A stretch of 64,000 nucleotides of DNA, taken from assembly GCF_003576645.1 (NCBI RefSeq), contig NC_044923.1, positions 18,224,233 to 18,288,232 on the forward strand. The letters are read 5' to 3'. Made by a program: the position numbers and the translations under genes. The DNA comes from Ipomoea triloba (lineage: Eukaryota; Streptophyta; Magnoliopsida; Solanales; Convolvulaceae). The notes below the pieces were generated by a model. It searched no databases, had not been told where the DNA came from, and saw only the letters and a list, made by a program, of their open reading frames with translations. Below, in pieces: positions 35,201 through 64,000 of the stretch (position 1 is the stretch's first letter; the number at the start of each line of letters is the position of its first letter).

Positions 35201-37398
35201 AATCCACGCACCTAAAGTTTTAGATCGACGCACTTTAAGAAGGAAAACCAATCACCTAAACCCTTAGGCCGATGCATCTTAAGTTTTAACAACTGGCGCA
35301 CCTTAAGCACACAAACTACGTACCTTACAAAAGAAAATCACGCACCTTAAATTTGACCTAGATGTCAAAAGACCAAATTGCCACCGCATTTTTTAATCAT
35401 GGTTAATGATGGACGTTGATTTATGAAAGATCAGTGGCTCTTATCTCACAGCACAATTGCACCTGACACACCTAACTGCACGAGAACCCATATATATATA
35501 TATATATATATTGGATCATATGATAACAAGTGTTTGAGAGAAAATTGAGTACCAATTTCAACTTTACATCTGGAAAAATCAAATAGAATATATTAGATTT
35601 TTAAAAAAAAATATTGGTGATATCACCAACTTTATTATTCAAACTTTTAACACTTAATTGTTTGTTTCTTCTCTGCCATGCATAGCTTGCTACTAAAACA
35701 GCCAAGGCTGATCCATGCCTTCTTGACTGGATAGATGACTACATAACCAGGCCAGATGTTCAGAAAGCTTTACATGCCAATGCAACTGCCTTTCCCTATT
35801 CTTGGAATTCTATTTTTCAGGGGTATTTAATTAAGTTTGTAATCTATTCTCTTATTGTGTCTGAAATAACTTGTAATATAATTGTGTGCTAAAACTCGAT
35901 CTATAATCAATTATGAAAAATGCAGGAATAGGGATACCAATTTGTACAACCTTGCTATTGACATATTGCCGACATTGTCAACACTTCTAAAGAGTGATAT
36001 CCCAGTTCTGATTTACAGGTTCATTATTATGACATTACATACATATTATTAGATTATTTGTTTTTTTAGATACATATATTAGATAGAGAGAAATATATAT
36101 ATATATATAAATGCCATTGCCTAAGTTATTTATTAATCGATAATTATAATTACACTATGTTGTAGTGGAGATCAAGATTTAAGGATCCCTGTCACACACA
36201 CTAGAATACTTGCAAACGAGCTTGCTACACGCTTGGAGCTTACCATTTTGGAGATGAATGAACCATGGTATGATGGCAACCAGGTATACCACTTTACCTA
36301 ACTCAAGAAACTTGAAAAATACAGACAAAAAATAGTTAACTTATCAGTCAATTTTGGCTTGTTTAACTACTATTAGCTGCGCTGTTTGAGTTTGTTAAAA
36401 GTCAATATAAGTGTTTGGTTAATAAACTTTTTGTAACTCCAACATGTTAAAATTTAAAAAGTTGCTCAAAACAAATTTTACAATTAACTTTTTGAAAAAA
36501 GAAATTATACCAAACAGCTATAAGCTAATAGTTAATTTACCAAACACCTTTCTACAATCAACTAATGTTATTAAAATCATATCCTCTATTCCTCTAACCC
36601 AATAAGCTAACCGCAATAGTTGAAAAAAACGTTAGGCGCTCCTCGGCCACTCGAGGAGCGCCTAGGATGCCTAAGCAGGGATTAATCGGCGCCTAGGCGC
36701 CCATGTATTTTTTTTATTTTATTGTTTATTTTTAAAAAATTTGTTTAAGTATTTTTAATTTTTAAAGATTAATAATTATAAATTATATAATATTTTAATA
36801 ATTAATACTAAAAAATTAAATATTAATCCAAAAATATATAGAGTTAGTACAATTTAGGGTTATTTCGCTCAAAACGATTTTGTTTTCAGTGAAATAACCC
36901 ATTAAAAAAAGAACAATAGTTAATTGGCCGACTAGGTGGCGTAGTCGGTGCCTAGGAGGTCTAGTCGGCGCCTAGGAGGCCTAGGCAGTTAGTGCCTAAG
37001 CGGCCTAGGCGGTCGCCCAGCCGGCCAGCCGCCTAGACCACCATTTAAGATGATACGCTAGGCGGTCGACCGACGCCTAGTGCCTAGGCGGCGATTAATC
37101 GGTCTTAGGCGAGATTTTTACAACACTGCTAACCGCTATCAGCTAATCATTTACCAGAGTGACCAAAAATAAAAGAAAATGGGTAAGCTTAATTGTTTTG
37201 TTTTGGGTTTTGTAGATTGGAGGATGGAGTGTAACATTCGGAAAATTGGGTGAAGGTAAAAAGGTAGCAAATTTGACATTTGCAACAGTAAGAGGTGGAG
37301 CTCATTTTGTGCCATCTTCATCTCCCTCGCAAGCTCTCACACTTTTTAAGGCATTTCTCAAGGGATCTTCACCACCCAAAAATCACTCCGACCACTAG
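24286..37398 (+). CDS. Serine carboxypeptidase-like protein B, with a Copia in intron 6
   Basis: Family S10, 472 residues. Ten exons join in frame: 24286-24514, 25709-25813, 25912-26007, 26821-26913, 27088-27179, 27834-28106, 35686-35822, 35926-36018, 36166-36283 and 37216-37398. The N-terminus ([16 protein letters not shown]) is a signal peptide. The nucleophile is Ser172 in GDSYGG, the Asp lies in SGDQD, and the His is His442 in RGGAHFV. At the exon 1-2 junction the usual NGGPGCSS motif reads GGGHDCSS. The carboxylate-binding Asn, the Pro and one Gly are therefore replaced, and the Glu before Tyr-like GESY is Asp. This departs from ordinary carboxypeptidases and partly resembles SCPL acyltransferases, which also use GDSY. 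Intron 6 is 7.6 kb because of a nested MITE and Copia. The coding frame is nevertheless intact. Whether it is spliced efficiently is unknown. Confidence 0.9.
24617..25140 (+). repeat. TRIM-like LTR fragments in gene B intron 1
   Basis: TGTTGACCGG and TGTTGGGCGG starts, an internal TCGAAAATGTGTGGC, and the end TTTAACA at 24802 are followed by AGTGGTATAAGAGC, close to the initiator tRNA-Met primer site. A second partial copy begins near 25058. The orientation is opposite to the cluster upstream. Confidence 0.5.
25171..25678. mobile_element. MITE in gene B intron 1
   Basis: The left end GGCATGTTTGGTTGGAT and the right end, reading GGCGTTTGGTTGGGAT in reverse, are inverted copies. Subterminal GAATTGCAATTC phrases lie on both sides. 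The middle holds a long TTA/TAA microsatellite (25325-25490). Confidence 0.65.
28155..28380. mobile_element. MITE in gene B intron 6, left part (split by Copia-1)
   Basis: GGAAAAATTGTAATTTTTGC at the left is inverted with the sequence at 34905-34935, which reads GGAAAATTGTAATTTATGC in reverse. AGGGGTGACATT continues across the Copia insertion into GATAACATATTATGGAGG at 34895. The two parts are one element of roughly 270 bp interrupted by the later Copia-1 insertion. Internal GGGGCAATATTTACACC phrases are also inverted. Confidence 0.75.
28381..28852 (-). repeat. Copia-1 3' LTR
   Basis: 472 bp with TG and CA termini. Three mismatches to the partner LTR at 34418-34889. Confidence 0.95.
28853..28864 (-). 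other. Copia-1 polypurine tract
   Basis: Read on the minus strand this is AAAGGGGGAGAG directly before the 3' LTR, the expected primer for plus-strand synthesis. Confidence 0.8.
29575..31134 (-). CDS. Copia-1 reverse transcriptase and RNase H region
   Basis: 519 residues are open from the Met at 31134. The frame can be followed upstream to about 31310, where the frameshift from the integrase part lies. Visible features are the RT start NGVWELV, TKWVYKNK and ARLVAQGYTQ, the catalytic YVDDIVFGS, and then RNase H motifs (YCDADWAGN, AEAEYIAAG, YCDNKSAIDI). It ends ADIFTKAL and SEIGLC, usual for Copia pol. This part looks intact on its own but is out of frame with gag-integrase. Confidence 0.9.
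   Translation of the reverse strand: MSEGDLCYTSKIEPKNTNEALLDEFWIEAMQEELQQFERNGVWELVTKPQDVNIIGTKWVYKNKTDEQGNIVRNKARLVAQGYTQVEGTDFEETFAPVARIESIRILIAVACILKIKLYQMDVKTAFLNGYLKEEVYVAQPKGFEDPYHPEHVYKLKKALYGLKQAPRAWYERLTQFLLNKGYQRGSVYKTLFVKTHKKDIMIAQIYVDDIVFGSTQSCYKNQFITDMEGEFEMSMVGELSYFLGLQVKQLENGIFVSQSKYTRNLVKRFGLNESKVVRTPVPTTERISKDPEGKKVEQTLYRSMIGCLLYLTASRLDLSFGVGICARYQANPMETHLKAVKRVIKYVKGTIDLGIWYSFDTNQHLSAYCDADWAGNMDDRKSTSGGCFLLGTNLVSWLSKKQSSISLSTAEAEYIAAGSCCTQLLWMKQMLEDYGIRQSIMTIYCDNKSAIDISKNPVQHSRTKHIDIRHHFIRELVEDEIVSLTHISTDKQLADIFTKALDGNRFSKLRSEIGLCQI
31179..32738 (-). pseudogene. Copia-1 integrase region, frame-broken with internal duplications
   Basis: The frame is the same as gag, after the in-frame TGA. 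It carries the pre-integrase zinc-binding part (WHQRMGH, CDACLENK) and the integrase core acids in MDLFGP, SDHGREF and NGVVERKNR. Around 31440-31860 short in-frame segments are repeated: TPYQIWKGR occurs four times, and RVYIRKETNMTP and SFGKFDIKGDQG occur twice each. The frame ends at 31179 after shifting away from the reverse transcriptase frame near 31310. The polyprotein is therefore disrupted. Confidence 0.88.
32739..34373 (-). pseudogene. Copia-1 gag and protease start, ended by a stop
   Basis: 544 residues. The gag capsid-type region opens with PALSGTNYSYWKARMK. Two CCHC zinc knuckles follow (CYECKGYGHIQSEC and CYYCHRLGHIKAHC). The protease motif YFDSGCSRHMTG comes shortly before a TGA at 32739-32741. 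The reading frame continues without a shift beyond this codon into protease and integrase, so the TGA is a nonsense change and not the natural end. Confidence 0.88.
34404..34415 (-). other. Copia-1 primer-binding site
   Basis: On the minus strand this reads TGGTATCAGAGC, complementary to the 3' end of plant initiator tRNA-Met, two bases from the 5' LTR. Confidence 0.92.
34418..34889 (-). repeat. Copia-1 5' LTR
   Basis: 472 bp. Followed at 34890-34894 by the right copy of the ACATT target duplication. Confidence 0.95.
34951..35492. mobile_element. Foldback element with GCACCTTAAG array, gene B intron 6
   Basis: It is flanked on both sides by (TA)n. The left cap is GGGAGGGTTCAGGTTCGG, and the right side reads GGGTTCTCGTGCAGTTAGG in reverse. 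The interior holds repeated phrases such as CGCACCTTAAG, GACGCACTTTAAG and CACCTTAAGAAGGAAAAC. It occupies the same place in intron 6 as related elements in genes C and D. Confidence 0.6.
36340..36600. repeat. Dispersed MITE fragment in gene B intron 9
   Basis: TTAACTACTATTAGCTG, ATCAATATAAGTGTTTGG and AATAGTTAATTTACCAAACAC phrases (with small variants) also occur near 18860-19100, 26580-26770 and 53100-53740. This is a common dispersed element with a decayed boundary here. Confidence 0.45.
36615..37128. mobile_element. Non-autonomous hAT-type element, CTAGGCG family, gene B intron 9
   Basis: An exact 8-bp target duplication CTAACCGC lies at 36607-36614 and 37129-37136. The right end reads CAGTGTTGTAAAAATC in reverse, and the left end AATAGTTGAAAAAAAC is a decayed match. 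The interior is full of CTAGGCG, GCCTAGGCGGC and similar palindromic phrases. The same family is at 53208-53565. No transposase is present. Confidence 0.8.
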
Positions 37399-39902: not shown

Positions 39903-39963
39903 TGCTATATAGGTGATTAAAAACTTAGGCCTTCACTTTCATCATATATATCATTAAAAAATA
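39903..39963 (+). promoter_or_regulatory. Core promoter of SCPL gene C
   Basis: TTGCTATATAGG lies about 60 bases before the ATG, followed by AAAAACTTAGGCCTTC, matching genes B and D. Confidence 0.6.
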
Positions 39964-42900
39964 ATGGTTTTCTTATGGTTCTTGTTGCTCAATACATTAT
40001 GTTCCATCTCAATAAGGAATGGTGAAATGATAGATTCTCTCCCGGGCCAGCCCTCGGGTGTGAACTTCAATCAGTACTCGGGGTATATTGTTACCGATAA
40101 ATCTCGTGGCAGAGCTCTATTCTACTATTTTGCTGAAGCCCAAACCGAAGATAGATTCTCAAAGCCGCTCACACTTTGGCTAGGGGGAGGTATATATGCT
40201 AACTTCTCTTCTCTTCTTTTCTCATATTTATTTTAATTTAATGCCATTCGTAAAAGAGTTGAAGAATTCATAAGAGGTAAGCAAAGATCAGTAAAAGACT
40301 TAAAGGGTTAAAGTTGCGTATTCGCTGTTAGTTATAACTTTTCGCGCCTAACAGTTTTGAATGTGTTAAAATCAGCCCATGATTGTTCCATTGCTGTTGT
40401 TGGGATGTTCTACGAACATGGTCCATTTAGGCCGACAAAAGATGGGAAGCTGGCAAAGAACCAGTTTTCTTGGAATTTAGGTAACTATTTAACGTTCTGT
40501 TTTGTATATGTATGGTTTTTATTTTTACACGAATATATGTATATATTGAGTAAGTTGATGTTGAAATTAAATGAGCAGAGTCGAACATGTTATACGTAGA
40601 CTCTCCAATAGTTGCATTTTCATACTCGAATACAACCTCAGACTACAAAATATGGAGTGATACCATGACAGGTGCGTATGGTGCCAATTACTTGAATTGG
40701 ATCACAACATTATTCACTTTGTATGTTTAAATTAGATTTAGTGTTTTTATTTAATTTGTTTGCCATTTTGATGCTGCAGCCCGTGAAAATATGAAGTTTC
40801 TTCGAAAGTGGTTTATTCAATATTCTGAATACAGAAATCAAGATTTTTACATTGCCGGAGATAGTTATGGAGGTAAACACTACACTACACTACATTTTTT
40901 TTTATGCCTTTAGTTAAAAAGAAAAATAGGAATAAATCTTAACCATAGATATAGTCCAAATCAACCATCCAGATTGAAGATGAATTAAAAAAAAATGCGT
41001 GATGGCATTCTTGTAATTTTGAGTAGGTCAGATTGTCTTTGTATCTGAGTACACATTTTATTCTTCAAGTGCATCTTTTATGCCTTCAAGTGCATATGCT
41101 ATGTTTCAGGCTTCAGCCTTCAGTACACAATTTCTCTTTTGAGTGCACATTTTTTCTTCTTCGAGTGCACATTTTTCCTTGCATCTTTTCATGCCTTCAA
41201 TTGCATCTGTTTTGTTTTATATTTCAATACGTAGTTTCTCCTTTGAGTCTACATCTTTGTGCCTTTGAGTGTAAAAATTGAGATTTACAAACGATTTGTA
41301 AGTGTAATTGCTTCAATAACACTTAATTGAATGACTTTTCTTTTTGGTACCATAAATTGTATCAATTGCACATCTATTTGCCGTCAAGTGCAGAATTTTG
41401 GCCTTCAAATGCACATTTTTATGCCTTCAAGTGTATAATTTTTTGCCTTCAAGTGCACGATTCTAGGCGTATTTGTTATATATTTTGCATTCTTTCCAAC
41501 AATGTATAACTAGATTTCTAATTAAACTTTGTGAGATTTACAAACGATTTGTATAACTAATTGCTTCAATAATATTTAAGTGGAATAACTTACCTTTTTT
41601 TATTATTATTATTACAGTATACATACATACATTGTTATTCAACTTAAGTGTTATTTAAACAATTACCATACAAATCGTTTGTAAATCTCACAAATTTAAT
41701 TAGAAATTTAGTTATACATTGTTGAAAAGAAGACAATATATAACTATAATAAGTATTAATCCATAATTGTGCACTTGAAAGCACAAAAGTGTGCACCTGA
41801 AGACACAAAAATATGCACTCGAAGGATAAGATTTTGCACTCGAAGGCACAAAGATATGCAATCTAAGCAATTATTGTACCAAAAAGGGAGAGTTATTCAA
41901 CTTAAGTGTTATTGAAGCAATTATCCTTACAAATCGTTTGTAAATCTCACAAATTCATTAAAACTTGGTTATATGTTATTGCAAAAGAAGACAAAAGATA
42001 TAATAAACATTGGTTTATGGTTAAGATTTAATCATATTTTTTTTACCTAAAGCCTCTTTCGCATTTGAACGCTAATATATATATATATATATATATCAAT
42101 AATCTTGGAAATGGGTTTGTATGTAGGTCACTTGGCACCACAACTTGCTGCATTAATACTTAAATACAACAGAAAACCGGAACATATCAGACCAATAAAG
42201 CTGAAAGGAATTGTTGTGAGTTAGTTGCTTCCTTCCATCAATTCTCCTCCTGATCTTCTGCATCATATGTAATTTTCTAATGTGAATTGTGTGATTGAGT
42301 GGAAGGAACTTATCCATCCATCAAAGGATAAAGGATCAATCTTTGGTTTTAAATATAGAACAATCTTAAATTTCTAAGCCTGTTTCACCTTTAGAGGTGT
42401 TACAATTCAGCCGACCTTAACCCTTAGAGGTGCTACAATTCAGCGAGAGAATTAATCTACAGTGAAAACACAGTTACATTCAAAAAAATCATATGAGATT
42501 TTCTTCATTCTGATCGTCTCTCGTTCAAGCTAGAACTCATTTTTTTTGTGTTTTTTCAATAAAAAATATTTTCAGCTTGGGAACCCACTTCTAGAAAAGA
42601 TGAGTTTATCTAACGTTGAGCATCTCTGGTACCACGGAATCATTTCTACAGAACTGTACCATCTGCAGAAGAAAGAGTGTAATGCAACAAGAATGGTTAA
42701 CGAATTATTAAACGGAGAATTGTCTGAATATTGCTCTGATATAGATGTTATGATTTCGGAGGAAATTGGGGACGATACGGATCAGGAAAATTTACTCTCT
42801 CAATCATGCGAATTCTCCTCAATTTCATCATCTCAACAACGTTATGTAAGTTAGCAATAGTTAAGTTATTCACTTTCAATACACACATATACTAGTGATC

Positions 42901-45203
42901 AAATGAGTCCATCTGTTATATGTGTAGACACATCCAGCTCATTTAGTGCTTGAGATGAATGACTTAGATTTTTGTCAACTATGCAAGTAGAGTGCACAGT
43001 TGCAAAGTTAGCCAAATCTCAAGTATTCAATGTCCTAGATTTGTCTACACAGACTCGGGGAAAGGGTGGACTCACGGGAACACTGACCTATATATATATA
43101 AGGAATGGTTCAGGTGCGAAGAAGGATTCCCGTGCGGTTGTGTGGCTACGTACCTTAAGCACTACAATGGTGCACCTTAAAGTACAAAAATCACGCACAT
43201 TAGCACACAAACAAAGCACCTTAAAAACACAAACCAGGCGCACCTAAAACTTTAGGCCGACGCACCTTAAGTACACAAGTCACGCACCTTAAGAACACAA
43301 ACCACACACCTAATGTTTTAAAATGGCCCACTTAAGTTCCAACAACTCACGCACCTTAAGCATACATATCACGCACCTTAAAAAAAAATTACAGACCTTA
43401 AGAAGAAAATTACGCACCTAAATCAAACACACAACCACACGGGAAACACTCCACCTCACGAGAACTGAATCCTATATATATTCAATCTTAATTGTTTGTT
43501 TCTTCTCTGCCATGCACAGCTTGCTACTGAAAGAGCCCAGGATGATCCATGCCTTCGTGATTGGATAGATCAATATATGAACAGGCCAGATGTTCAGAAA
43601 GCTTTACATGCCAATACAACTGACTTGCAAAATCCTTGGAAATCTACTCTTCATGGGTATTGTATTTTGTAACCTATTCTCTTATTGTGTCTGAAATCAC
43701 TTGTAATTGTGTGCTAAAACTCGATCTATAATCAAGTATGAAAAATGCAGGAATAGGAATACAATGTTGCACAACCTTGCTATTGACATATTGCCAACAT
43801 TGTCAAAACTTCTAAAGAAGGATATCAAAGTTCTGATTTACAGGTTCATTATTATGACATCAGATACATATATTAGATAGAGAGAAAAAAAATGCATTGT
43901 CGGAATTAAAACATGTGCTCCATTCCAACTAAAAGTCTAAACTGATAGTTGGATTACACATTTATGTTTATATATATTATTTGCTAACACGCTCCCTCAC
44001 GTTTGGGCCAGTGGAGATCAAGATTTAAGGATTCCTGTCACACACACTAGGATACTTGTTAGTGTGCTTGCTAGACGCTTGAAGCTCACCACTTTGGAGA
44101 TGAATGGACCTTGGTATGATGGCAAGCAGGTATACCACTTAGGTAAAGCTTATTTAGGAGCGTATAGTTTATTTTAAGCTACTAATAAGTTACAAGCTCT
44201 GTTTGGTAATGTTCCTAATATAAGCTAGTAACTTAAAATAAGAGCTTATTTTTTAACTAGATAGTGTTTCAAAATAAGCTAGTAGCTTCCTAACTTTTTT
44301 TCCATCTTTAACCTTATTATTTTAAAGAAATGACATTATTTACCCTTCTCAATTAAAACTTTTTTGGCTAAACTTTTTTGACTTTTTCTCTTCAATATGT
44401 TTGGTTGTAATTTCAATTTGACATTTGTGTTTGAACATTGATTTTTGCAGAACTAATCTTATGAATTATAAACATTTTGTTTTACTTTATATGCTTTCAA
44501 ATATATGTTCTTCCTTTATATTTTATTAAAATATATTGATTTCACTATTGTATATTTTAATATATAAACAAATCTATTTAAATTTAAAACTATTTAAATT
44601 GTATGAATGTGTCCTTTTTAGTCTTTTTACATTTATTAGCTTATCAAAACGCTAATTTTACCAAACACTTTTAAGCATAACAGCTAGTTTAACAACTCTT
44701 CAGATTTCAGCTTTGAGCTTATAGCTTTTAAGTTTTCAGCTATTTTTCAGCTTTCAGCTATCTTTTCAGTTATGTTTGCCAAACATAGCCTTAACCTAAC
44801 TCAAGAAACTTGAAAAACTTAAAAAACTTAAAACAAAACAAAATGCAATAAACAAAAAATTAAAACAAGGTAAGTTTTTTTTTTTAGTACTACTGACTCT
44901 ATTACAATGTAGTATATGTTCATAACTATTTTCTCAACCTACTAAAACACAAAGAATTAATATCGTCTCCACTGAGACTCGAACTCACAACCTCCATATG
45001 CTTTGTTTTGATTTTTGTAGATTGGAGGATGGAGTCAAACATACGGAAAATTGGGTGGATGTAAAAAGGTGGGAAATTTGACATTTGCAACAGTAAGAGG
45101 TGGAGCTCATTTTGTGCCATCTTCATCTCCCTCGGAAGCTCTCACACTTTTTAAGTCATTTCTCAAGGGAACTCCACTACCCAAAACTGACCCCAACTAC
45201 TAG
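39964..45203 (+). CDS. Serine carboxypeptidase-like protein C
   Basis: Family S10, 468 residues. Ten exons join in frame: 39964-40189, 40376-40480, 40579-40671, 40780-40872, 42127-42215, 42576-42845, 43520-43656, 43751-43843, 44012-44129 and 45021-45203. The signal peptide is nearly identical to that of B. The nucleophile is Ser170 in GDSYGG, with SGDQD and His438 in RGGAHFV. The exon 1-2 junction reads GGAHDCSI in place of NGGPGCSS. In exon 3 one codon is missing relative to B and D: the strand normally reading P-x-GV is PIVAFSYS, so a conserved Gly is lost. Intron 4 holds a 1.2-kb foldback, intron 6 a GCACCTTAAG foldback, and intron 9 a MITE and a SINE. The frame is complete, so the gene may be expressed, but it is the most altered of the three at otherwise conserved positions. 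Confidence 0.9.
40286..40353 (+). repeat. TRIM-like LTR end in gene C intron 1
   Basis: It ends CGCGCCTAACA exactly 22 bases before exon 2. Gene D has the same LTR-end phrase at the same 22-base distance (51430-51536), so the insertion is older than the C/D duplication. Confidence 0.5.
40903..42072. mobile_element. Foldback with GCACTCGAAGGCAC array, gene C intron 4
   Basis: The ends are inverted: GCCTTTAGTTAAAAAG on the left, GGCTTTAGGTAAAAAA when the right is read in reverse, both followed by AAATCTTAACCATA. The left arm has units like CTTCAAGTGCACATTTT and the right arm the complementary type TGCACTCGAAGGCACAAA, about 22-24 bp each. A (TA)n run lies at the right edge. There is no coding capacity. 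Confidence 0.65.
43094..43480. mobile_element. Foldback with GCACCTTAAG array, gene C intron 6
   Basis: A short TA run precedes GGTTCAGGTGCGAAGAAGG and CCCGTGCGGTTGTGTGG. The right end, reversed, gives GGATTCAGTTCTCGTGAGG and CCCGTGTGGTTGTGTG. Between them are about a dozen degenerate CACGCACCTTAAGNACACAA units. Confidence 0.65.
44154..44793. mobile_element. MITE in gene C intron 9 (truncated)
   Basis: Contains AAATAAGCTAGTAGCTT-type phrases and ends GCCAAACATAGCCTTA. It is the same family as 45951-46725 in the opposite orientation. The left end lacks the TAAGGCTGTGTTTGG terminus. Confidence 0.6.
44880..45005 (-). repeat. SINE in gene C intron 9
   Basis: GTACTACTGACTCTATTACA follows a T-run, then CCACTGAGACTCGAACTC, the reverse of the box B region. 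It is the SINE family of 57311-57431, truncated at the tRNA head. It ends about 15 bases before exon 10. Confidence 0.6.
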
Positions 45204-45648
45204 TTTGTTTTCAAGCATTTATACTATGAGTAGAAACAGGGGTACGTGGAGCCAGAAATTTCGGTCAATAGAGGTGGGAAAAAGAGAAAAACTTCAAAAT
45301 ATAGCTAACAAGGTTTGATCCTAAACCTTTTGTAATCAAAACTCACTACAATCAACTATTCTACTCCAAACTTTTAATAAATTTTATGTATAATACTCTC
45401 TCTATCTCATGTTATCTGTCATAGTTACTATTCATTGATCCAATCAACTCTTTTTTCTTTGTTTATTTTCTTTATTAATTTTTTCTTATTTTTAAATTTG
45501 ATTTTTTGTATTTAATAGTACATAATTTCTAAATATATAAATTTTGTATAACAATACTAAACTTAATATTATGAAAAATGAATTAAAAATAACTTCAATC
45601 AAGCCTCATTAACCGAATCAGACACATAAAATGGGACGGAGAGACTAA

Positions 45649-45652
<4 letters not shown>
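45204..45652. other. Spacer after gene C
   Basis: 3' flank of gene C and AT-rich DNA. CTCTCTCTATCTCATGTTATC, ending in the reverse phrase near 45640, suggests a decayed MITE. No gene is seen. Confidence 0.4.
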
Positions 45653-45718
<66 letters not shown>

Positions 45719-45719
45719 N

Positions 45720-45757
<38 letters not shown>
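45653..45757. repeat. (TA)n microsatellite with one N
   Basis: About 105 bp of TA repeats with an N at 45719, probably an unresolved assembly join. Its length is unreliable. Confidence 0.9.
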
Positions 45758-45760
<3 letters not shown>

Positions 45761-45950
45761 ATGATCAGGTGTGGCCGTGCGGCCTATTTTCAGCCATTAG
45801 ATCATATCAACTCATCAAATCAACGCGCAATATATATATGTTACAGAACACACCATTCTACTTACTAAAACGCACCAGAGATTCGATAAAACACACCATT
45901 TCACACAATATACCAAATGCACCTATTCACTTAAAATTTATCAATATACT

Positions 45951-46725
45951 TAGGTTATGTTTGGTAAACCCAGCTGAAATGGTAGCTGAAAGCTGAAAAG
46001 TAGCTGAAAGCTAAAAAGCTATAAGTTCGAAGCTGAAATCTGAAGAGCTGTTATGCTTAAAAGTGTTTGGTAAAATTAGCTTTTTGATAAGTTGATAAAT
46101 GTAAAAAGACTAAAAAGGACATCTACATAAAAGTTAAATAATTTTAAATTTAAATAGGTTTGTTTACATATTAAAATATAAAATAATGAAATCAATATAA
46201 TTTAATAAAATATAAAGTAAGAACATATATTTAAAAATATATAAAGTAAAAAATAAATGTTTATAATTCATAAAATTAGTTCATACAAAAATTATTGTTC
46301 AAACACAAATATCAAATTAAAATTACAACGAAACATATTGAAGAAAAAAATTATCAAATTAAAATTACAACGAAACATATTGAAGAAAAAAATGCTCAAA
46401 TTAAAATTACAACGAAACATATTGAAGAAAAAAATGCCAAAAGAGTTTTAATTGGGAAACATATTGAAGAAAAAAATGCCAAAAGAGTTTTAATTGGGAG
46501 GGATAAATGATATCATTTATTTAAAATAATAAGGATAAAGATGGAAAAAAGTTGAGAAGCTACTAGCTTATTTTTGAAAAGCTACTTGAAGTAGCGTTTC
46601 AAAATAAGCTTTTATTTTAAGCTACTAGCTTATTTTGAGAGCATTACCAAACAAAGCTTATAACTTATTAGTAGCTTAAAATAAGCTATAAGCTCCTAAA
46701 TAAGCTCTGCCAAACACAGCCTTAA
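45951..46725. mobile_element. MITE, TAAGGCTGTGTTTGG family
   Basis: The left end GGTTATGTTTGGTAAACC and the right end, reversed, TAAGGCTGTGTTTGGCAGAG are inverted copies. It contains a tandem repeat of about 46 bp (46309-46500) with three to four copies of AAATTAAAATTACAACGAAA. Confidence 0.65.
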
Positions 46726-47015
46726 TAAAAAACATCATTCTACGTATTAAAATGTACCACAACGTGCCTCATGTCAGATTATAAGCATACACTATTTACA
46801 CATATTAGAAAACATGTGCTAAAATATGCACCATTCTACGNATTAGTAGCTTAAAATAAGCTATAAGCTCCTAAATAAGCTCTGCCAAACACAGCCTTAA
46901 TAAAAAACATCATTCTACGTATTAAAATGTACCACAACGTGCCTCATGTCAGATTATAAGCATACACTATTTACACATATTAGAAAACATGTGCTAAAAT
47001 ATGCACCATTCTACG
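46667..47015. repeat. 174-bp exact duplication around an N
   Basis: 46667-46840 and 46842-47015 read the same, with the single N at 46841 between them. The most economical explanation is two contig ends that overlap but were joined without merging. A partial third copy follows at 47016-47114. Confidence 0.8.
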
Positions 47016-47497
47016 TATTAAAATGTACCACAACGTGCCTCATGTCAGATTATAAGCATACACTATTTACACATATTAGAAAACATGTGCTAAAATATGC
47101 ACCATTCTACGTATTAAAATGCACCACACTTATTAGAAACACGTGTTAAAATACACACCATTCAATGTATTAAAATACACCAGACGACGTATTAAAACAC
47201 ACCATTCCACAACATAGTTACACATCATTCTACGTATGAAAATGCACCAGCGAATAGATTAAAACACACCATTCCACAACACAGTTAATGCACCAACATA
47301 CGTAATAAAACGCACCACAGCATGTATTCAAACGCACCACACTGTGTACTAAAATGCACCATTCCAATTCACGTAATATAAATACAAAAATTACCATAAT
47401 AACCGCACTTAAACATACGCAAATTTCAGTAGGATTAATGAAATTGGACGGTGCAGATTAGGCCGCATGACCTCACCAGAGCTCGCCGCCGCATTTG

Positions 47498-47502
<5 letters not shown>

Positions 47503-47582
<80 letters not shown>
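47503..47582. repeat. (TA)n microsatellite
   Basis: About 80 bp of TA repeats. The apparent Tyr-Ile reading frames here are repeat artefacts. Confidence 0.95.
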
Positions 47583-47584
<2 letters not shown>

Positions 47585-48117
47585 TAGTATTTTCTATGCG
47601 CGATGCGCAAAAACATATGCCCAATATTTATATTTTAAAAAATAACTAACAAATTCTTATTAATTAAAACCTATATGAAAAAAAATATTTATATTATATA
47701 ATGTCTACAAATATTATTATCATTAAAGAATATAAGAAAATATATGGTGGATATATGTATGTGCATGGTAAAGTTAGGGTGTGTTTGGAAAGCAGAAAAA
47801 TGATTTCTGAAAAATGTTTTCTAGAAAATGAGTCATTTTCCAGAAAACATTTTCCTTTATTGTATTTGACTGCAAAGAAGAAATCTATCTTTGTTGTTTG
47901 GTTCATTTTCCAAAAAATGGACAGAGAAATGGTTCACCTTTGTAATGGAAAAGATAACGAAAGTTATCTCGGTAAGGGTAATTTTGTCCAAAAAAATTGT
48001 ATATAGTGCAACTCTAAAAACACAATGTACAAAATAGTTAGCACTAAAAACATGGACATAAATGAGGTATATAACGTTAACTGAGACTTATTATGTTTAT
48101 ATATATATATATAGATT
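47583..48117. repeat. MITE-like spacer
   Basis: GTGTGTTTGGAAAGCAG followed by GAAAAATGTTTTCTAGAAAA and its inverse CCAGAAAACATTTTCC forms a short foldback at about 47775-47920. No gene is seen. Confidence 0.4.
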
Positions 48118-48364
48118 TTGGTTCAATTGCGGCCGTGCTCTCCCGTGCGGCCGTGCGGTCACACACCACTCAATGTTACGAAATACACAACTCAATGTTA
48201 AGAAACACACCACAATGAAATACAATGAAACACACCACAATTTTAAGAAACACACCACAATGCATATTTGTGTGGTGTGTTTCTTAACATTGAGTGGTGT
48301 ATTTCGTAACATTGAGTGGTGTGAACCGCACGACCGCACGAGAGAGCACGGCCGCACCTGATCA

Positions 48365-48366
<2 letters not shown>
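48118..48366. mobile_element. Compact foldback with CACACCAC units
   Basis: The two arms are almost perfect inverted copies. The left reads GCGGCCGTGCTCTCCCGTGC, then CACCACTCAATGTTACGAAA. The right, in reverse, reads GCGGCCGTGCTCTCTCGTGC, then CACCACTCAATGTTACGAAA. Short units of 20-24 bp starting CACACCAC lie in both arms. A TA run lies on the left, a CT/TA microsatellite (48367-48432) on the right. Confidence 0.75.
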
Positions 48367-48434
<68 letters not shown>

Positions 48435-48658
48435 GAATGGGCAATGATATTTTTATTTTTATTTTTTCTCTCTTATTTTTTATTATTACATTGTTTAAAA
48501 GTAGATGAGTAAAAGGGCAATATGCCGGTTTTGTAATTACTAAAAGATTCGATTATAATAGTAAGATAAAGAAAGTAGACAAACAAACATGCTAATGGAT
48601 ATCAAAACCTATAGTAGGGGCAAAACTCCCCAACCAAACACACCCTCTGGCTGGAAAA

Positions 48659-49720
48659 CACTACTACAAATGACAATTTTTACATAAGTTTTTTGAGACA
48701 AATGACAATGGTTTTATTTCGACGTCATTCTGACAAACGTAATCAATAAATGATACGACATCGGTTTTTAGCAAAAACTGACATCTTCTTATGTTTTAAT
48801 TAAATTTAAAAAAAAAACATATGATGTCGATTTTTGCTAAAAAGTAAAAACTGACATTGTATATATATTTTTTAAATATTAATTTTTTTATACTTTAATT
48901 TCCTTTCAAAACCTGTGCAATTTCACAATTTACATCAACATTCAAAACCTGTGCAATTTTACATTCATAATAATATTTGACAATTAATCAAGCTAATAAA
49001 TCTCTTAATTAATCAAACTAATAAATATCACAATTAATCAAGCTAGTAAATTCTACCATTGATACTAATTAATAATAATAATTTGAAACTGAAATTATCA
49101 ATATCAATTATTTAATGTACTAAAGAAGTATTGTATTAACTCATTCATCAATAAGAAACTTGGACCAATGTCTCTAACTTAGCTTCATCAATATCTTATT
49201 GATTGTAGGACAATCTTCCAAATCTCTCCAAGCTCTACAAAGTTGAAAAGAGATAAATAATCAATAAGCTAGTATTTTAAAAATTTTGAAGGAGAAAGAT
49301 ATTTTATTAAATATTTGACTTATATATCCATTCCTTTGTATGCTTGCGTGGAAACAATTTTCAACCCGAATTTCATGACATAATATTCGCATTCGGTAGT
49401 TCCTCTTTAATTTGTTTGGCACACTACATTTGAATTACAATATAATTGAGTTTCTTTAATAAAAAACAATAAGATATATGTAGTTTTACAAAGTGTATGA
49501 AGTACTTACCGAGCATGTAATCCATTTCGGTGGACGACTTTGTTCCTTTCCACTCAGCATGCTTGTTTCCATCACACACCTATTAATATATGACATATAA
49601 AATATACGTAAATACTTGACATCACTATATTAATAATAACTATTAATTATTTATAAGTTTACATATGTTTTCATTATTTCTTTAATTAATGTTCTCAAGT
49701 GCCTCGAGACTAATGGAATC
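48659..49720 (-). mobile_element. Probable CACTA element remnant
   Basis: CACTACTACAAATGACAA at 48659 has the CACTA terminus, followed by subterminal GACAATGG and ACATCGGTTTTTAGC phrases in both senses. At 49510-49579 on the minus strand a short open exon with GT and AG borders encodes HAEWKGTKSSTEMDYML, which resembles fragments seen in CACTA-type elements. No complete transposase is present and the other end was not found. Confidence 0.4.
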
Positions 49721-50419
49721 AAACCAATATATTTCATTTAATTGAGGACAAATCGCCATCAAAAAGCTTTAAAGTACCTTTTGTCCCACATTGGTTTGCA
49801 CCACTATTTATACAAGAGTCTTTCTAAGGCTAATTGAATTGTATAGCATAGAGATTCTCTCTTGCGCGCAGAGGTGCAAATCATTTCTAAATTAATTTAC
49901 AATTCATGTAATTTCTGAATTAATTCTCAAGTAGTGACAGGCCGGGGTTATAAGTTTGATTTTATTATCAAATTAATGTCACGATTAAATGTTATTTAAT
50001 CCTTCAACTCCTATATAAGTTGATAGTAGAAGCAGCAGATTTACATATACAACGAAATATATTTTCTTTCTCGAAAACTCTGCTTCTACTCCTTTCTTTG
50101 CCTATTGTGTTCAAAACTTTGTTCTTGTTCGTCGGGTTTCATAGTTTGAGTGCTCAAACTTGAAGCCGTAGCTTGTTTTATCATGCGAAACCTAGGCTAC
50201 AACGCTCCTAATACCTTGAGAAGCAGCAAATAAGGTTTTAAGGACAATGTAGTGATTACACGACTCAAACTTATCACCTACCCGAAAACCCTTTCCTTTC
50301 TTGGGCTTGTTATTTTCCCTGAAATATTATTTTGGCAGTAATATTTCATAACAGTAGTTGATGGCGTATTTTGTGTTTTTTGAGGAGTGTGGTATCCTAA
50401 ATCATAGGCATTATAGGCC
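49721..50419 (+). repeat. LTR-like DNA upstream of gene D
   Basis: Contains GTCCCACATTGG, a CTATTTATAC phrase, and CTACAACGCTCCTAATACC, similar to the leader-like repeats upstream of B and C. Probably a decayed LTR. No gene is seen. Confidence 0.4.
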
Positions 50420-50538
50420 AAAGATCTTGTGGTCTAGTGGCACCCGATTTACACTCTCACATAGATGGGGAGTGGGTTCGAGTCTCAGTTGAGGCAATTG
50501 TTAACTCATTAGTACTCAAAAAACAAAAAAAAAAAAAA
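50420..50538 (+). mobile_element. SINE with poly-A tail and target duplication
   Basis: GATCTTGTGGTCTAGTGGCA (box A-like) and GGGTTCGAGTCTC (box B-like) are followed by TAGTACTC and a poly-A tail. A long target duplication flanks it: ATCATAGGCATTATAGG before and ATCATGGGCATTATATAGG after. This is a good full-length plus-strand reference for the family. Confidence 0.85.
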
Positions 50539-50917
50539 ATCATGGGCATTATATAGGCGTTTGATAAACCAATCACCACTACTCATTTAGTTCAACCAAA
50601 ACTCTCAATAAATCTATTTAAATTTCACCACAAAATTAAGGTTTTAATATATAAAATATATTATCCGGAAAACCTACATCAACTACACTATGAAATCACG
50701 CTATTTTAGTGTTTCTCAATCTGTTTCACTTCCTTGTTTAATTTGTATAATCAACTACTAATTAACAAAAAAAAAAACAGCATATCTGATCTGTTGTCCC
50801 ATACACCATTTTTTCTTCCCCACACTTTCTATGCGTATGTAATAATTAATAAACTCCTAACAAACTTAGCCATCCATCTGCTTGTTAATATTCAGAATCG
50901 AATATAATCCCATAGGG

Positions 50918-50984
50918 CCATTGCTATATATGTGATTAAAAACTTAGGCCTTCGAATTTCATCATATATATCATTAAAAAAATA
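50918..50984 (+). promoter_or_regulatory. Core promoter of SCPL gene D
   Basis: CCATTGCTATATATGTG lies about 65 bases upstream of the ATG, then AAAAACTTAGGCCTTC. It matches genes B and C. Confidence 0.6.
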
Positions 50985-53900
50985 ATGGTTTTCTTATGGT
51001 TCTTGTTGCTCAATACATTATGTTCCATCTCAATAAGGAATGGTGAAATGATAGATTCTCTCCCGGGGCAGCCCTCGGATGTGAACTTCATTCAGTACTC
51101 TGGGTATATTGTTACAGATAAACTTCATGGTAGAGCTCTATTCTACTATTTTGCTGAAGCCCAATCAGAAAATAGATTCTCAAAGCCGCTTACACTTTGG
51201 CTAGGGGGAGGTATAGATGCTAACTACTTCTCTTCTCTATTTTAATTTAATGCCATTTGTAAAACAATTGAAGAATTCCCCCTCGAGTAACACGCGGACC
51301 ATAATCTCTTTTTATCGGGTAGCGTGGAGATTTGAACCCATAATCTAATAGTCTAATACCAAATTAAAGCATGTGCTCTATCTCAATTAAAAGCCTAAGC
51401 TGATAGTTGGACTGCACATTTATGTTTATATTATATTTATGGGAGGGTCAGTAAACGACTTAAAGGGCTAAAGTTACATTATAATTACTAGCTATATATA
51501 ACTTTTGGTGTAAGTGGTAAGCGTTTGATCCTAACAGTATTGTATCTGTTAAAATCAGGCCACGAATGTTCCATTGCTACTATGGGGATGTTCTACGAAC
51601 ATGGTCCATTTAGGCCGACAAAAGATGGGAAGCTAGTAAAGAACCAGTTTTCTTGGAATTTAGGTAATTATTAATGTTTTGTTTTGTATATATATATATG
51701 TATGGTTTTATATATTGACTAAGTTGATGTTGAAATGAGCAGAGTCGAACATGTTATACGTGGAAACTCCTGTTGGAGTTGAATTTTCATACTCGAATAC
51801 AACCACAGATTATTACAACGTATGGAGTGATACCTTGACAGGTGCCAACTTGGATCACAACATTATTCACTTTGTATGTTTAAATTAGATTTAGCGTTTT
51901 TATTGGTCACACTTGTGTGAGACCGTCTCACGGATCCTTATTCGTGAGACGAATCGGGTCGGGTCAAAGCACCATGCAAATGTCATACTTATATGTGCAA
52001 ATCTCATACTTATATACTCAAATATAACACTAATCAGAAATACAATTTTTGTTACTTATAAGAGAAAAAGTAATACATTTTTCATAATAAGTAATGTTGA
52101 CAAGTGACTCTCACTTATAAGGGCAAATATAATACTTTTGAGAAAAAATGTAATACTTTTCCCTTAAAAGTATTATATTTACCCTAATAAGTAACAAAAA
52201 TTTTATTCCCGATTAGTATTACATTTGAGCATATAAGTATGACATTTGTGCATATAAGTGTTACATTTGCATCTTGACCCGACCCGTCTCATGGTGAGAC
52301 GGTCTCACAAGTTTTTGCCTTTTTATTTAATTTGTTTGCCATTTTTATGCTGCAGCCCATCAAAATATGGAGTTTCTTCGAAAGTGGTTTATTGAATACC
52401 CTGAATACAGAAATCTAGATTTTTACATTGCTGGAGATAGTTATGGAGGTAAACACTATAGTACATTACATTTTTTTATTACAGTATATCATAAATATAT
52501 ATAGAGATCCAGCATCATGTGCAAAGGACTTCTCATGTAATTAAAAAAATGCACAAAATATCAGCCATTAATTTCGTTCAGATCTACTACTCTTTAAAAA
52601 ATATACTTCGAACTAACAAAAATTGTGCACTTGAAGGCGCAAAAAATGTGCACTCTTTGGCACAAAAATTTATATTCAAAGATCAAAATTATGCACTCAA
52701 AGGCACAAAGATGTGCAATTAAAGCAATTATATATGGTGCAAAAAAGGTGAGTATTCAACTTAGTGTTATAGAAGCAATTATCCATCTAATCGTTTGTAA
52801 ATCTCACAAATTTCATTAAAAATTTAGTTATACATTGTTGAAAAGAATACAAAAGATATAATAAATACTGGTCCATAATTGTGTACTAGAAGTCACAAAA
52901 ATATGCACTTGAAGGCACAGAAATATGCACTCAAAAGACAAAATTCTTCACTCGAATGCACAAAGATGTGCAATCTAAGCAATTATGTTATCAAGATGGG
53001 GAATTTATTCAACTTAATTAAGTGTTATTATAGCAATTACCCTTACAAATCGTTTGTAAAGCTCAAATATTTCAAAATAAGACAAAAGATATAGGTCCTG
53101 TTTGGTAAATTAGTTAGCCTATCACCCAATTTTTGTTTATTTGACCACTATTAGCTATTTAACTTGGTTAAAAATCAATATAAGTATTTGGTTAATCAAC
53201 TTTTTGTCACTGTTGCAAAAATCGGCCTACTAGGCGCTAGGCGCCCCTACGCCGAGGCGAATTGCTTCATAGGCCCGCCTAGTGCGTAACTTGGCCGAAT
53301 TTGGCTTAGTTAACTCACCCAACTCAGCAGAGTTAATCGAGTTAACTCGGACAAGTCGGACCTTGTTAATTTTTTTTATTATAATTATATATATTTAAAT
53401 TTATTTATTTATATAAATAAGAGAAGTAAGAGATATAAATATAATATATATAATATAATATATTTCATACACCCCCACATAGCAATATTTTTTTATTTTT
53501 ATAGGTCGCCGCCTATGTGTCGCCTAACTACCTAGGACTAGTGCCTAGCACCTACTGTAACCATGCTTTTTGTAACTCCAAAATGCTAAAATTCAAAAAG
53601 TTGTTCAAAACAATTTTTTCAATTAGCTTTTTGAGAAAAGAAATTATATCAAATAGCTATAAGCTAATAGCTAATTTACCAAACACCTTTCTACAATTAG
53701 CAAATGTTATCAACTAATTATATACTTTAACCCAATCAGCTAACAGTCATTTACCAAACAGGGCCATAATAAACACTGGTCTATAATTTTACACTTGAAG
53801 GCATAGACTGTGCACTCGAAGGGCCAAAATTGTGCACTCAAAGGGAGAAACCATGCATTGAGACAAAATATATGCACTAGAAGAAGAAAAAAATTAAATA

Positions 53901-54084
53901 TGCCCTCAAAGAAAAAATGTACACTCAAAGAAGGCAAAATGTGCACTCGAAAACAAAAAACATCAAAACTTATTACCTACACAAAATTACAATAATGCAA
54001 CTTCGTGTTTTTTAATTCTTTTTCATTTTGAGCTGATGATTTGACTAGAACTATATTTTAGATTTAACCCTATTTTTTACTTAA

Positions 54085-54127
<43 letters not shown>

Positions 54128-56078
54128 ATTTGAAAGCATGCATATATATATATATATGCAATAATCTTGGAAATGGGTTTGTATGTATGTAGGTCACTTG
54201 GCACCACAACTTGCTGCATTAATACTTGAATACAACAGAAAACCAGAACATATCAGACCAATAAAGCTCAAAGGAATTGTTGTGAGTTAGTTGCTTCCTT
54301 CCATCAATTCTTCACCTGATATTCTGCATCATATGTAATTTTCTAATTGGAGGGTATGATTTAGTGGAAGGGACTTATCAATCCTTAACCAAAGGTCAAA
54401 AAATCAATCCTTGATTTTGGATATAAAGTAATCTTAAATCTCCAAGCCAACTCTCAGACCCTTAGAGGTGTTACAATTCAGCCTGTCTTAAATCTCCATG
54501 CTAGCTATCTCATCTTTAGAGGTACTACAATTCAACGAAGCGAGAAGATTAGTCATTGTGTCTAACGATAGAAACACTGGTTACATTTAAATTTAAAAAT
54601 CATATGATATTTTCTTCATTCATTCTGATCGACGTCTATCATTCAAGCTAGAACTCATTTTTTGTGTTTTTTCAATAAAAAATCTTTTTCAGCTTGGGAA
54701 CCCATTTCTAGAAAAGATGAGTTTATCTAATGTTGAGCATCTGTGGTACCACGGAATCATTTCTACAGAACTGTACCGTCTGCAGAAGAGAGTGTGTAAT
54801 GCAACAAGAATGGTTATCGAATTCTTAAGTGGAGAAATGTCTGAATATTGCTCTGACATAGATGTTATGATTTCGGAGGAAATTGGGGTTGATATGGATC
54901 AGGATCATAACGAAAATTTACTGTTTCAATCATGCGAATCCTCCTCAATTTCATCATCTCAACAACATCATGTAAGTTACCAATTGTTAAGTTATTTCAC
55001 TTTAGTACTAAAAAAAAATAGCCTTCCAATGCGAACTTACGAACTTAAATAATACACAGTAACTAGTACATGGATGCACAACAACTCCTCTACCTCCGCA
55101 ACAAGTACACAAATAATGCATCACACCTACTATATGAATGCACCAAAATTACTACATAAATGCATTGAAATTACTACACAAATGCACCATGTTGCTTTAC
55201 ATTCGTGTAATATGATGTTGTGCATTCTTTAAGAAGTTCTCAGATTCGCATTGGAAGACCGGTTCTCATCTAAATGCATCTCCCTCTCAACCCCTCTCTC
55301 TATATATATAGTGGTTCTGGTGCGGGAATTTGCTTAGGTGTGGCCGTGAAGTTTAATATGAGTCGTTGATCAAATATAGATCAATGACTCAAATCAATGA
55401 AAATTTAAAAAAATGTGCGTATGGAAGGAACCAAACAACCTAACTTAAGCATTAAAATGACACACCTTAAGTACAAAAGTCACGCACTTTAATCACACAA
55501 GCAAAACACCTTAAGAATACAAACCACACACTTGAAAAAATTACATAACTTGAACCAAACATGAAAATATTATATTCCTAAGCAAATATAGCCTTAGTTA
55601 GCTTATATAACTTGAACCAAACGCTCCCCTAAAGTTTTAAAATTGAGTCTCTAAATATTATAAATGACGCACTTTAAGTACAGAAACCACACACCTTAAG
55701 AAGGAAAACGACGCACATAAAGCTTTAAACTGACGCACCTTAAGTTTCAACACTGAAGCACCTTAAAGCATACAAATAGCGCACCTTAAGAAAGAAAACC
55801 AGCACCTTAAGAAGTAAAACAACGCACCTAAAGTTTTATATCGATGCACCTTAAGTTTCAACCAAAACACACCTTAAGTTCTCACGGTAGAATTGACACA
55901 CCTTAAAGCACAGAAATCACGCACTTAAAGATGAAAAACCACGCACCTTAAGTTTTACCAATATGAAAAATTACCGCGTGTTTTTAATAAGTTAATCCTG
56001 AACGTTGATTTTGGCAAGATCAATAGTTCTCTTTTCACTGCACAACTGCACCTGAGCACACCATCTGCATTTGTACCG

Positions 56079-56129
<51 letters not shown>

Positions 56130-58171: not shown

Positions 58172-58247
58172 ATCTCCCACTTGAAGATTATGATTGTAAC
58201 AATCATATCTTCACACCATTCTTTCTACCTTGCACTTTCCATGCCGC

Positions 58248-59064: not shown

Positions 59065-59065
59065 N

Positions 59066-61960: not shown

Positions 61961-61998
61961 ATTGTTCTTGAAACAAATTCTGAACAATATATCTGAAG

Positions 61999-62010
61999 GC
62001 TCTGATACCA
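61999..62010 (-). other. Copia-2 primer-binding site
   Basis: TGGTATCAGAGC on the minus strand, two bases from the 5' LTR. Confidence 0.92.
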
Positions 62011-63485: not shown

Positions 63486-64000
63486 ATATTATGTATATAC
63501 ACGCACAAGCTAAGGGATTAGGTGCGTGCCAAGCTTCTTGTAGGTGAAATATGTGGATTAATTATAACAATTGAAAAAAAAAATGCTATGACATTTAAAA
63601 TTTGCGTAAGATCACAACTTAAGGTGCGTAAATTTAAAATTTAAGATGTCTAAGTTCAAAAATTAAATTGTGTAGTTTATAGCGTTAGGTGTATAAATTT
63701 AAAGTTTAAAGTTGTAGATTTAAGGGTCATCTTGAAGTGTGAAATATACTTTAGCAATTTATATCATGGACCAGAGTGCACAATATAATGCATTGTGCAT
63801 CTTGATCTAAAACGACGTCATTTTGGTTCTCTAAATTAACTGGTTTTTTGTTTCCCGTTCGGCTTTAACTTATAAGATGAGTTCTGTGCATTCAGTGTAT
63901 TCTAGTCATTGATTATGTGTATATTAGTATGTAATTCTGTACATTATTGATTTCCAATACTATACCTTATGGAATATAAGAGATAATACTTAGGCTTATA
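63486..64000. other. Terminal spacer
   Basis: GGTGCGTAAATTTAAAATTTA, GGTGTATAAATTTAAAGTTTA and similar phrases at 63620-63720 recall the short-unit arrays inside SCPL introns, beside a (TA)n tract. No gene is seen. Confidence 0.4.

What the first reader, a model, noticed from the sequence alone, without database searches (positions are those of the whole stretch)
40903..56080. A group of foldback elements built from degenerate 22-bp GCAC units beside (TA)n tracts
Seen directly: at 34951-35492, 43094-43480 and 55312-56080 (CACCTTAAG type), 40903-42072 and 52505-54140 (GCACTCGAAGGCAC type), 45758-47502 (GCACCA type), 48118-48366 (CACACCAC type) and 55015-55275 (ATGCACCAAAATT type), inverted caps enclose runs of short units repeating about every 20-24 bp. 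All carry a GCAC or CACACC core, and almost all border TA runs. Cap and unit wording differ, so they are not simply copies of one element. The shared period and design suggest one mechanism that builds or expands arrays inside inverted-repeat elements, perhaps replication slippage during transposition into (TA)n. Micron-type MITEs of rice also sit in (TA)n, but I know of no described family with this internal array. Assigning a common origin is inference.
Basis: partly seen in the sequence, partly recalled or inferred. Interest (0 to 1): 0.82.

Follow-up and report, generated by a model that had tools for sequence, protein, structure and literature searches.

The report
TA-tract mobile elements with 22-bp arrays
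A stretch of a morning-glory-type plant genome holds several related non-coding mobile DNA elements that mostly sit in TA repeats and contain rows of a short motif repeated every 22 bases; in two of the families that motif resembles the sequence at the elements' own ends, which suggests that the rows are docking sites for a protein that moves or protects them.

Summary
Lag 22 is the top or a near-top period in all eight listed elements, and no equal-length control from the rest of the window reaches any element's value (narrowly for F). Ten of 16 element ends abut (TA)n within 3 bp. "Foldback" holds for some only: E and F fold well, the three CACCTTAAG elements do not. Several elements share paralogous sites, so there are at most eight independent insertions, perhaps five.

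New here: 15 of 16 ends carry a shared motif, YGCAYYTGAAC, 2-8 bases inside the end; families 1 and 2 share a subterminal block, at marginal E-values; units of families 1 and 2, but not D, E or F, repeat that motif beyond GCAC; unit cores are conserved more than spacers; family-1 arrays are not homogenised in place.

Host: Ipomoea. Closest kin: (TA)n-targeting non-autonomous Mutator-like elements. Best mechanism, inferred: arrays of binding sites for the transposase or a companion protein. MULE membership is not shown: no transposase could be sought genome-wide and no target duplication was seen. New variant of a known kind.

The parts
34951..35489 (+). Element A1 (family 1, CACCTTAAG units); array about 35120-35355; (TA)n on both sides (34933-34950, 35490-35511)
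   Evidence: folds no better than shuffles
43101..43472 (+). Element B1 (family 1); array about 43142-43427; TA tract 43089-43100 on the left, a 9-bp TA run on the right
   Evidence: folds no better than shuffles
55311..56081 (+). Element C1 (family 1); arrays about 55454-55541 and 55661-55956; a 111-bp block repeat (five units) at 55668-55877; TA tracts 55301-55310 and 56082-56123
   Evidence: folds little better than shuffles, z -1.2
40903..42074 (.). Element B2 (family 2, TGCACTCGAAGGC units); long imperfect palindrome with units inverted between the halves; no cap motif at the left end; TA tract 42075-42096
52505..54141 (.). Element C2 (family 2) with a nested insert at about 53094-53770; TA tract 54142-54157
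45758..47502 (+). Element D (GCACCATTC units) between TA tracts 45653-45757 and 47503-47583; holds a nested element (about 45952-46724); the 175-bp duplication at 46666-47020 has an N at its junction (46841)
48114..48367 (.). Element E (ACACCACTCAATG units); strong foldback; TA tract 48098-48113 on the left, (CT)n then TA tract 48397-48432 on the right
   Evidence: (folded as 48114-48382, with part of the CT run)
55018..55261 (.). Element F (ATGCACCAAAATT units); foldback; not directly in (TA)n
35364..35439 (-). Subterminal block of A1, with counterparts in C1 (55958-56028, - strand), B2 (40941-41024, + strand) and C2 (53979-54057, - strand)
47490..47500 (+). Example of the terminal motif (CGCATTTGAAC), 2 bases inside the (TA)n flank of D; 15 of 16 ends hold a related site
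63612..63666 (-).
26915..27050 (.). Paralogous intron in gene copy A that lacks the family-2 element: about 100 bp of unaligned, partly AT-rich sequence instead

Best explanation
These are several related families of short, non-coding, non-autonomous DNA transposons that mostly insert in (TA)n microsatellites in an Ipomoea genome. They share a terminal motif (YGCAYYTGAAC), and families 1 and 2 share a subterminal block. Inside lies an array of 22-bp units. In families 1 and 2 the units resemble the terminal motif and are followed by a looser, A-rich spacer. The arrays most likely work as rows of binding sites, about two helical turns apart and so on nearly the same face of DNA, for the transposase or a companion protein. 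That protein would bind the end once and the array many times, which would raise specificity or recruitment for a short motif. Different families would carry different unit wording because protein and sites diverged together. Shown: period, related ends, unit-to-end similarity in two of five families, core conserved more than spacer. Inferred: the binding protein, its identity, the benefit and the co-divergence.
For: Period 22 in all eight elements, reached by no equal-length control. 15 of 16 ends hold the terminal motif at p<0.05 each, 9 of 16 at p<0.01, with matrices that exclude the element's own family. At [CT]GCAC sites in the arrays of families 1 (21 sites) and 2 (20 sites) the following six letters score 0.49 and 1.35 on average, against about -8 at 98 background sites; 0 of 5000 permutations as high, own family's ends excluded; 62% and 65% of sites exceed the background's 95% point. 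The unit core keeps its commonest base more than the rest (family 1: 0.86 against 0.57, chi2 202 for 21 df; family 2: 0.82 against 0.71; D: 0.73 against 0.66). Families 1 and 2 share a subterminal block. Unit matrices of families 1, 2 and D hit 1, 0 and 0 places outside the listed elements, the one being the extra array at 63627. Precedents: VANC proteins bind short motifs in tandem repeats of VANDAL elements (PMC5735166, passages); Galileo transposase binds secondary sites in its tandem repeats (PMC3688188, passages).
Against: Sites of D (12), E (10) and F (3) do not continue the terminal motif beyond GCAC (p 0.29, 0.82, 0.14), so the end-to-unit link is shown in two of five families. Unit orientation relative to the ends differs: the same as the cap in the right half of B2, opposite in E, one-directional in family 1. 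No binding protein, autonomous partner or target duplication was found. Units were picked partly by their core, which inflates core conservation (3 phase-filled units were added in family 1 to limit this). The matrices rest on sites that I chose by eye in the other families. Subterminal matches between families 1 and 2 are marginal (E 0.08-0.21); in the family-1 search another site (3808, E 0.13) ranks above B2, and C2 is not listed at all.
Confidence: 0.5

Rival explanations
1. The arrays are targets of a VANC-like anti-silencing protein encoded by an autonomous relative, not of the transposase. Unit wording evolves fast between families to escape host small-RNA silencing and to keep family specificity.
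For: VANC targets are short motifs in tandem repeats in non-coding parts of VANDAL elements and diverge rapidly between families (passages of PMC5735166 and PMC10398659). Here unit wording also differs between families while the period stays.
Against: In families 1 and 2 the unit resembles the terminal motif, which points to the end-binding protein. No VANC-like gene could be sought in this genome.
Confidence: 0.17
2. The arrays are neutral minisatellites. In an ancestor the end motif was duplicated in tandem by slippage or unequal exchange, and the arrays have hitch-hiked since without function.
For: Tandem repeats or repeated ends inside transposons are described in the papers seen (PMC3169594, PMC3310237, PMC10342631, passages). 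C1 shows a 111-bp block repeat and D a 96-bp one.
Against: Decay is uneven: core kept more than spacer, though unit picking inflates this. The period is 22 in all families despite different wording. No sign of continued homogenisation within family-1 copies.
Confidence: 0.22
3. The elements act through hairpins: palindromic arrays give double-stranded RNA and small RNAs that silence or regulate the family.
For: E and F fold far better than shuffles, and B2 is a long palindrome.
Against: The three family-1 elements have direct arrays and fold about as well as shuffles, so a hairpin is not a shared feature. C2 and D were not folded.
Confidence: 0.06
4. Ordinary satellite or chance similarity: unrelated AT-rich elements that happen to hold GCAC words.
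For: AT-rich sequence and short cores invite chance matches; subterminal matches between families are individually weak; F's period only just exceeds its controls.
Against: No equal-length control reaches any element's lag-22 value; ends of one family are predicted by the ends of the others.
Confidence: 0.03

Closest known systems
SaTar elements of guayule and rice, including Micron (PMC5907723; outline, passages, section 13 and part 1 of section 16 seen)
   Same: Short non-coding elements with imperfect inverted ends, placed in (TA)n and sometimes other microsatellites, often linked through a shared microsatellite; several families in one genome
   Different: A search of that main text for 'tandem repeat' found none, and no internal unit array is described in the parts seen. 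Target duplications and autonomous Mutator-like partners were shown there, not here
MuTAnT of Medicago truncatula (PMC4486113; parts 1 and 2 of 4 seen)
   Same: (TA)n-targeting, non-autonomous, long inverted ends built of modules
   Different: Ends there carry GGGG/CCCC stretches; 90% of elements are 200-300 bp; no 22-bp array is described in the parts seen; a putative autonomous mudrA-bearing element is known
VANDAL Mutator-like elements with VANC-bound tandem motifs (PMC5735166, PMC10398659; passages)
   Same: Short motifs in tandem arrays in non-coding parts, with wording specific to each family
   Different: Motifs there are YAGTATTAY or AGTTGTCC/AGTTGTAC, in a group that codes for VANC; here the elements are non-coding and the units of two families resemble the ends
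Galileo (PMC3688188, passages) and Tm1 of root-knot nematodes (PMC3169594, passages)
   Same: Inverted ends built of short tandem units; in Galileo secondary transposase sites lie in the tandem repeats
   Different: [quoted passage not shown] Tm1 has 13-15 bp units and 9-bp target duplications; no (TA)n preference appears in the passages seen
SIRC of Arabidopsis (PMC10342631; outline, section 2.1 and passages)
   Same: Short direct repeats separated by diverse spacers, linked by its authors to MITE interiors
   Different: Described there as 2-8 repeats not detectable by RepeatMasker or DECIPHER; the arrays here are found by Tandem Repeats Finder, run to more than 8 units in family 1 and keep one period

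Membership tests
Microsatellite-inserted MITE (MiM / SaTar / Micron type) | Flanked by (TA)n microsatellites | tested here: met
   10 of 16 ends within 3 bp of a TA tract of at least 10 bp; shifted controls at most 2. The other six: B1R (9-bp TA run), ER ((CT)n then (TA)n), and B2L, C2L, FL, FR without such a tract at the edge
Microsatellite-inserted MITE (MiM / SaTar / Micron type) | Short, non-coding, with inverted ends | tested here: met
   244 to 1745 bp including nested inserts; of the ORFs of 130 aa or more only one lies across an element (E, 151 aa) and one gene ORF reaches 35 bp into F; the end motif has the same outward orientation at both ends of 7 of 8 elements (not B2)
Microsatellite-inserted MITE (MiM / SaTar / Micron type) | Linked, non-nested clusters that share a microsatellite | tested here: inconclusive
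   A1 shares its left TA tract with another TA-bordered inverted-end element (28161-34932), and F lies next to C1; two cases only
Mutator-like superfamily (MULE) | 9- to 10-bp target site duplication in members outside microsatellites | tested here: inconclusive
   F lies outside (TA)n; no duplication was seen by eye at its ends
Mutator-like superfamily (MULE) | mudrA-like transposase in an autonomous partner with the same ends | not testable with these tools
   The whole plant genome could not be searched; some searches did not complete
Foldback elements | Long self-complementary ends made of tandem units | tested here: not met
   Not met by A1, B1 or C1; met by E and F and roughly by B2; C2 and D not folded
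VANDAL with VANC targets | Tandem arrays of a family-specific short motif in non-coding DNA | tested here: met
VANDAL with VANC targets | Encodes or responds to a VANC protein | not testable with these tools
   no coding member at hand
SIRC | Direct repeats not detectable by standard repeat software (RepeatMasker, DECIPHER) | tested here: inconclusive
   Another program, Tandem Repeats Finder, reports period-22 rows in all eight elements; the two named programs were not run

The most novel reading that the evidence does not exclude
A whole clade of (TA)n-targeting plant MITEs carries an iterated copy of its own terminal recognition sequence as a helically phased 'address', and family-specific drift of that address together with its binding protein splits one ancestral transposon into separately mobilised families inside one genome.
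Probability: 0.3. Interest if true: 0.75.

Novelty: new variant of a known kind. Interest (0 to 1): 0.52.

Why it matters
What tandem arrays inside MITEs and foldbacks do is largely open: the Galileo paper (2013) says that tandem repeats of Foldback and Phantom elements are untested as binding sites. Here the unit of two families resembles the element's end, which turns a structural likeness into a binding prediction that a gel-shift can settle. It would also explain why families with different wording share one design. For annotation: such elements look like unrelated repeats by sequence and are joined by end motif, period and site.

Tried and rejected
Single-copy reading (all are copies of one element): rejected, units and ends differ between families. 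Satellite or chance: disfavoured. Slippage still at work within copies: not supported in family 1. All-foldback reading: rejected. One ancestral insertion for A1/B1/C1: left open. Their flanks are 88-93% alike and the elements 72-78% (shuffled about 65%), and B1 and C1 share unit order at their left ends, so one old insertion with fast change or repeated insertion at one microsatellite both fit. B2 and C2 share a site but align partly in opposite orientation. The 175-bp duplication in D is a likely assembly artefact because an N sits at its junction.

Rows dropped: I used 17 of the 21 D units (copies from the near-identical duplications dropped). In one search I used 37 of the 38 family-1 units (one weak unit dropped), those 37 plus 3 phase-filled ones. 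One search scores only [CT]GCAC sites ([CT]ACAC for E), not all units. The first period control (0 of 102 with z>5) was too strict, because three elements also lie below 5; one search replaces it. The 14 terminal sites were chosen by eye. In one search the site in each end is found by score alone, over 16 ends, but the matrices still rest on the eye-chosen sites of the other families; it finds the same site at all 14, a further one at C2L (p 0.013) and none at B2L (p 0.31). E is bounded at 48382 and at 48367/8.

Searches for relatives: two viral contigs patterns gave 0 and 0. The genome contigs pattern gave 29 bacterial or archaeal stretches, taken as chance and not read. A letter search of papers for six motif strings found 31 papers, 15 listed; from their titles and abstract beginnings none is about these elements. 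Searches for internal arrays in such MITEs showed none in the rows listed, which are capped at 8 to 20 of up to 1,051 papers (one search found none at all); that is the whole basis for 'not seen in print', and most subscription papers are not held. The originals on Micron, TAFT, FARE and SoFT were not read.


Full report
What is there. The window comes from a flowering plant. Exon pieces of a serine carboxypeptidase-like gene in it are 90% identical to an Ipomoea batatas protein; the next best are other Ipomoea proteins, and among the 120 hits listed everything outside Ipomoea is 56% or less. Self-comparison shows three paralogous stretches of that gene family, A (about 22564-36319), B (38864-45395) and C (50176-57116). 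I call them A1, B1, C1 (family 1), B2, C2 (family 2), D, E and F.

Period. Against dinucleotide shuffles lag 22 is the top lag in A1, B1, C1, B2, D, E and F, and second to lag 43 in C2; in a second run with fewer shuffles it is top in all but D, where lag 10 leads. Two sub-segments show it poorly: 53770-54086 (z 2.8) and the left part of D. In equal-length control windows from the rest of the window (193, 214, 129, 81, 54, 51, 217 and 218 for A1, B1, C1, B2, C2, D, E and F; overlapping) none reaches the element's z22; the closest is F, 4.3 against 4.2. In a sliding scan of lags 13-60, lag 22 is the commonest top lag among overlapping 220-bp windows with z>4 (66 of 160). Of 11 merged stretches with lag 22 on top at z>3.5, 8 lie on the listed elements and 3 elsewhere (3101-3321, 19041-19261, 63421-63781); the third holds a unit that the family-1 matrix also finds (63627).

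Site. Ten of 16 ends lie within 3 bp of a TA tract of at least 10 bp, 11 within 15 bp. Shifting all ends together round the window gives a mean of 0.07 and a maximum of 2 in 5000 for the first; for the second one of 5000 shifts reached the observed 11, as a shift close to zero would.

Independence. A1, B1 and C1 stand at the same place of the paralogous gene, and so do B2 and C2; A1 is separated from the shared right flank by about 130 bp that B1 and C1 lack. Copy A lacks the family-2 element and has about 100 bp of other sequence there. Flanks are 88-93% identical, the family-1 elements 72-78% with shuffled values near 65%. I cannot tell one ancestral insertion from repeated insertion in one microsatellite.

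Shared ends. A position matrix built from eye-chosen end sites of the other families finds, in the last 25 bases of an element, a motif with consensus YGCAYYTGAAC in outward orientation. At 15 of 16 ends p is below 0.05 against 4000 random 25-mers, at 9 of 16 below 0.01; the motif lies 2-8 bases inside the end. The exception is the left end of B2 (p 0.31). Behind the cap A1 and C1 share a block with B2 and C2: the family-2 profile ranks A1 and C1 as its best non-self hits (E 0.081 and 0.14); the family-1 profile ranks B2 second among non-self hits (E 0.21), behind another site (3808, E 0.13), and does not list C2. These E-values are weak; matching position and strand make the likeness credible.

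Units. Aligned on the core, units read AAAAT.ACGCACCTTAAG (family 1, n 38), AAAAATGTGCACTCGAAGGCA (family 2, n 33), TAAAATGCACCATTC-type (D, n 21), AAACACACCAC-type (E, n 7) and AATGCACCA-type (F, n 5). Outside GCAC their joint likeness exceeds column permutations (p 0.003). Of 10 pairs, three are below 0.05 without correction: D with E (0.0006), 1 with 2 (0.027) and D with F (0.041). The key test: at [CT]GCAC sites in the arrays, the six following letters were scored with an end matrix that excludes the family's own ends. Families 1 (21 sites) and 2 (20 sites) score far above 98 background sites (0 of 5000 permutations as high); D, E and F do not (p 0.29, 0.82, 0.14). So in two families the unit resembles the end motif.

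Conservation. In family 1 the core columns keep their commonest base at 0.86 on average and the rest at 0.57; in family 2 it is 0.82 and 0.71, in D 0.73 and 0.66. Uniform decay is rejected (chi2 202, 114 and 74 for 21 df). Units were picked partly by their core, so the size of this effect is an upper bound.

Fold. E (z -18.6) and F (z -5.5) are foldbacks and B2 is a long imperfect palindrome; A1, B1 and C1 are not. C2 and D were not folded.

How it probably works. A protein that binds the end motif could also bind the units; 22 bp is close to two turns of B-DNA (recalled), so neighbours sit on nearly one face. VANC proteins bind motifs in tandem repeats of VANDAL elements (passages), and Galileo transposase binds secondary sites in its repeats (passages); these are precedents for the work, not proof of kinship. 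Which protein it is, and that it binds, is inference.

What is known. (TA)n-targeting non-autonomous Mutator-like elements are described in Medicago, guayule, rice, pineapple and carrot (pineapple and carrot from passages). The elements here fit that kind by site, size and end motif, but neither a target duplication nor a transposase was shown, so MULE membership stays open. I saw no description of 22-bp arrays that repeat the end motif in such elements in the listings, which are capped lists from a limited open library.

Verdict. A real, partly ordinary finding: a known kind of element with an interior that I did not find described and that makes a sharp binding prediction.

Noticed in passing
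63421-63781: A further period-22 stretch with CTTAAGGTGCG-type units on the - strand, about 150 bp from the long TA tract 63341-63459; probably another family-1 relative near the window end.
   Followed up: partly
51911-52309: Another inverted-end element, with an apparent 8-bp duplication TTTTTATT against the empty sites in paralogues A and B, and with its own internal 21-bp repeats.
   Followed up: partly
28161-34932: A TA-bordered element with inverted ends (GGAAAA-TTGTAATTT type, seen) interrupted by a copia retrotransposon with 99% identical LTRs (28377-28852, 34414-34889); it shares its right TA tract with A1.
   Followed up: no
46841: A single N at the junction of a 98% matching 175-bp tandem duplication: likely assembly artefact. 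Other Ns: 45719, 59065, 63400.
   Followed up: partly
57736-62450: A probable second copia-type retrotransposon with 99.5% identical ends and polyprotein-like ORFs (recognised by eye).
   Followed up: no
204-447 and 45409-45654: The stretch directly left of the TA tract of D is a dispersed repeat with an inverted copy at the window start (79%).
   Followed up: no
6958-7506 and 11523-14232: Eukaryotic porin and pectate lyase coding pieces (Pfam).
   Followed up: no
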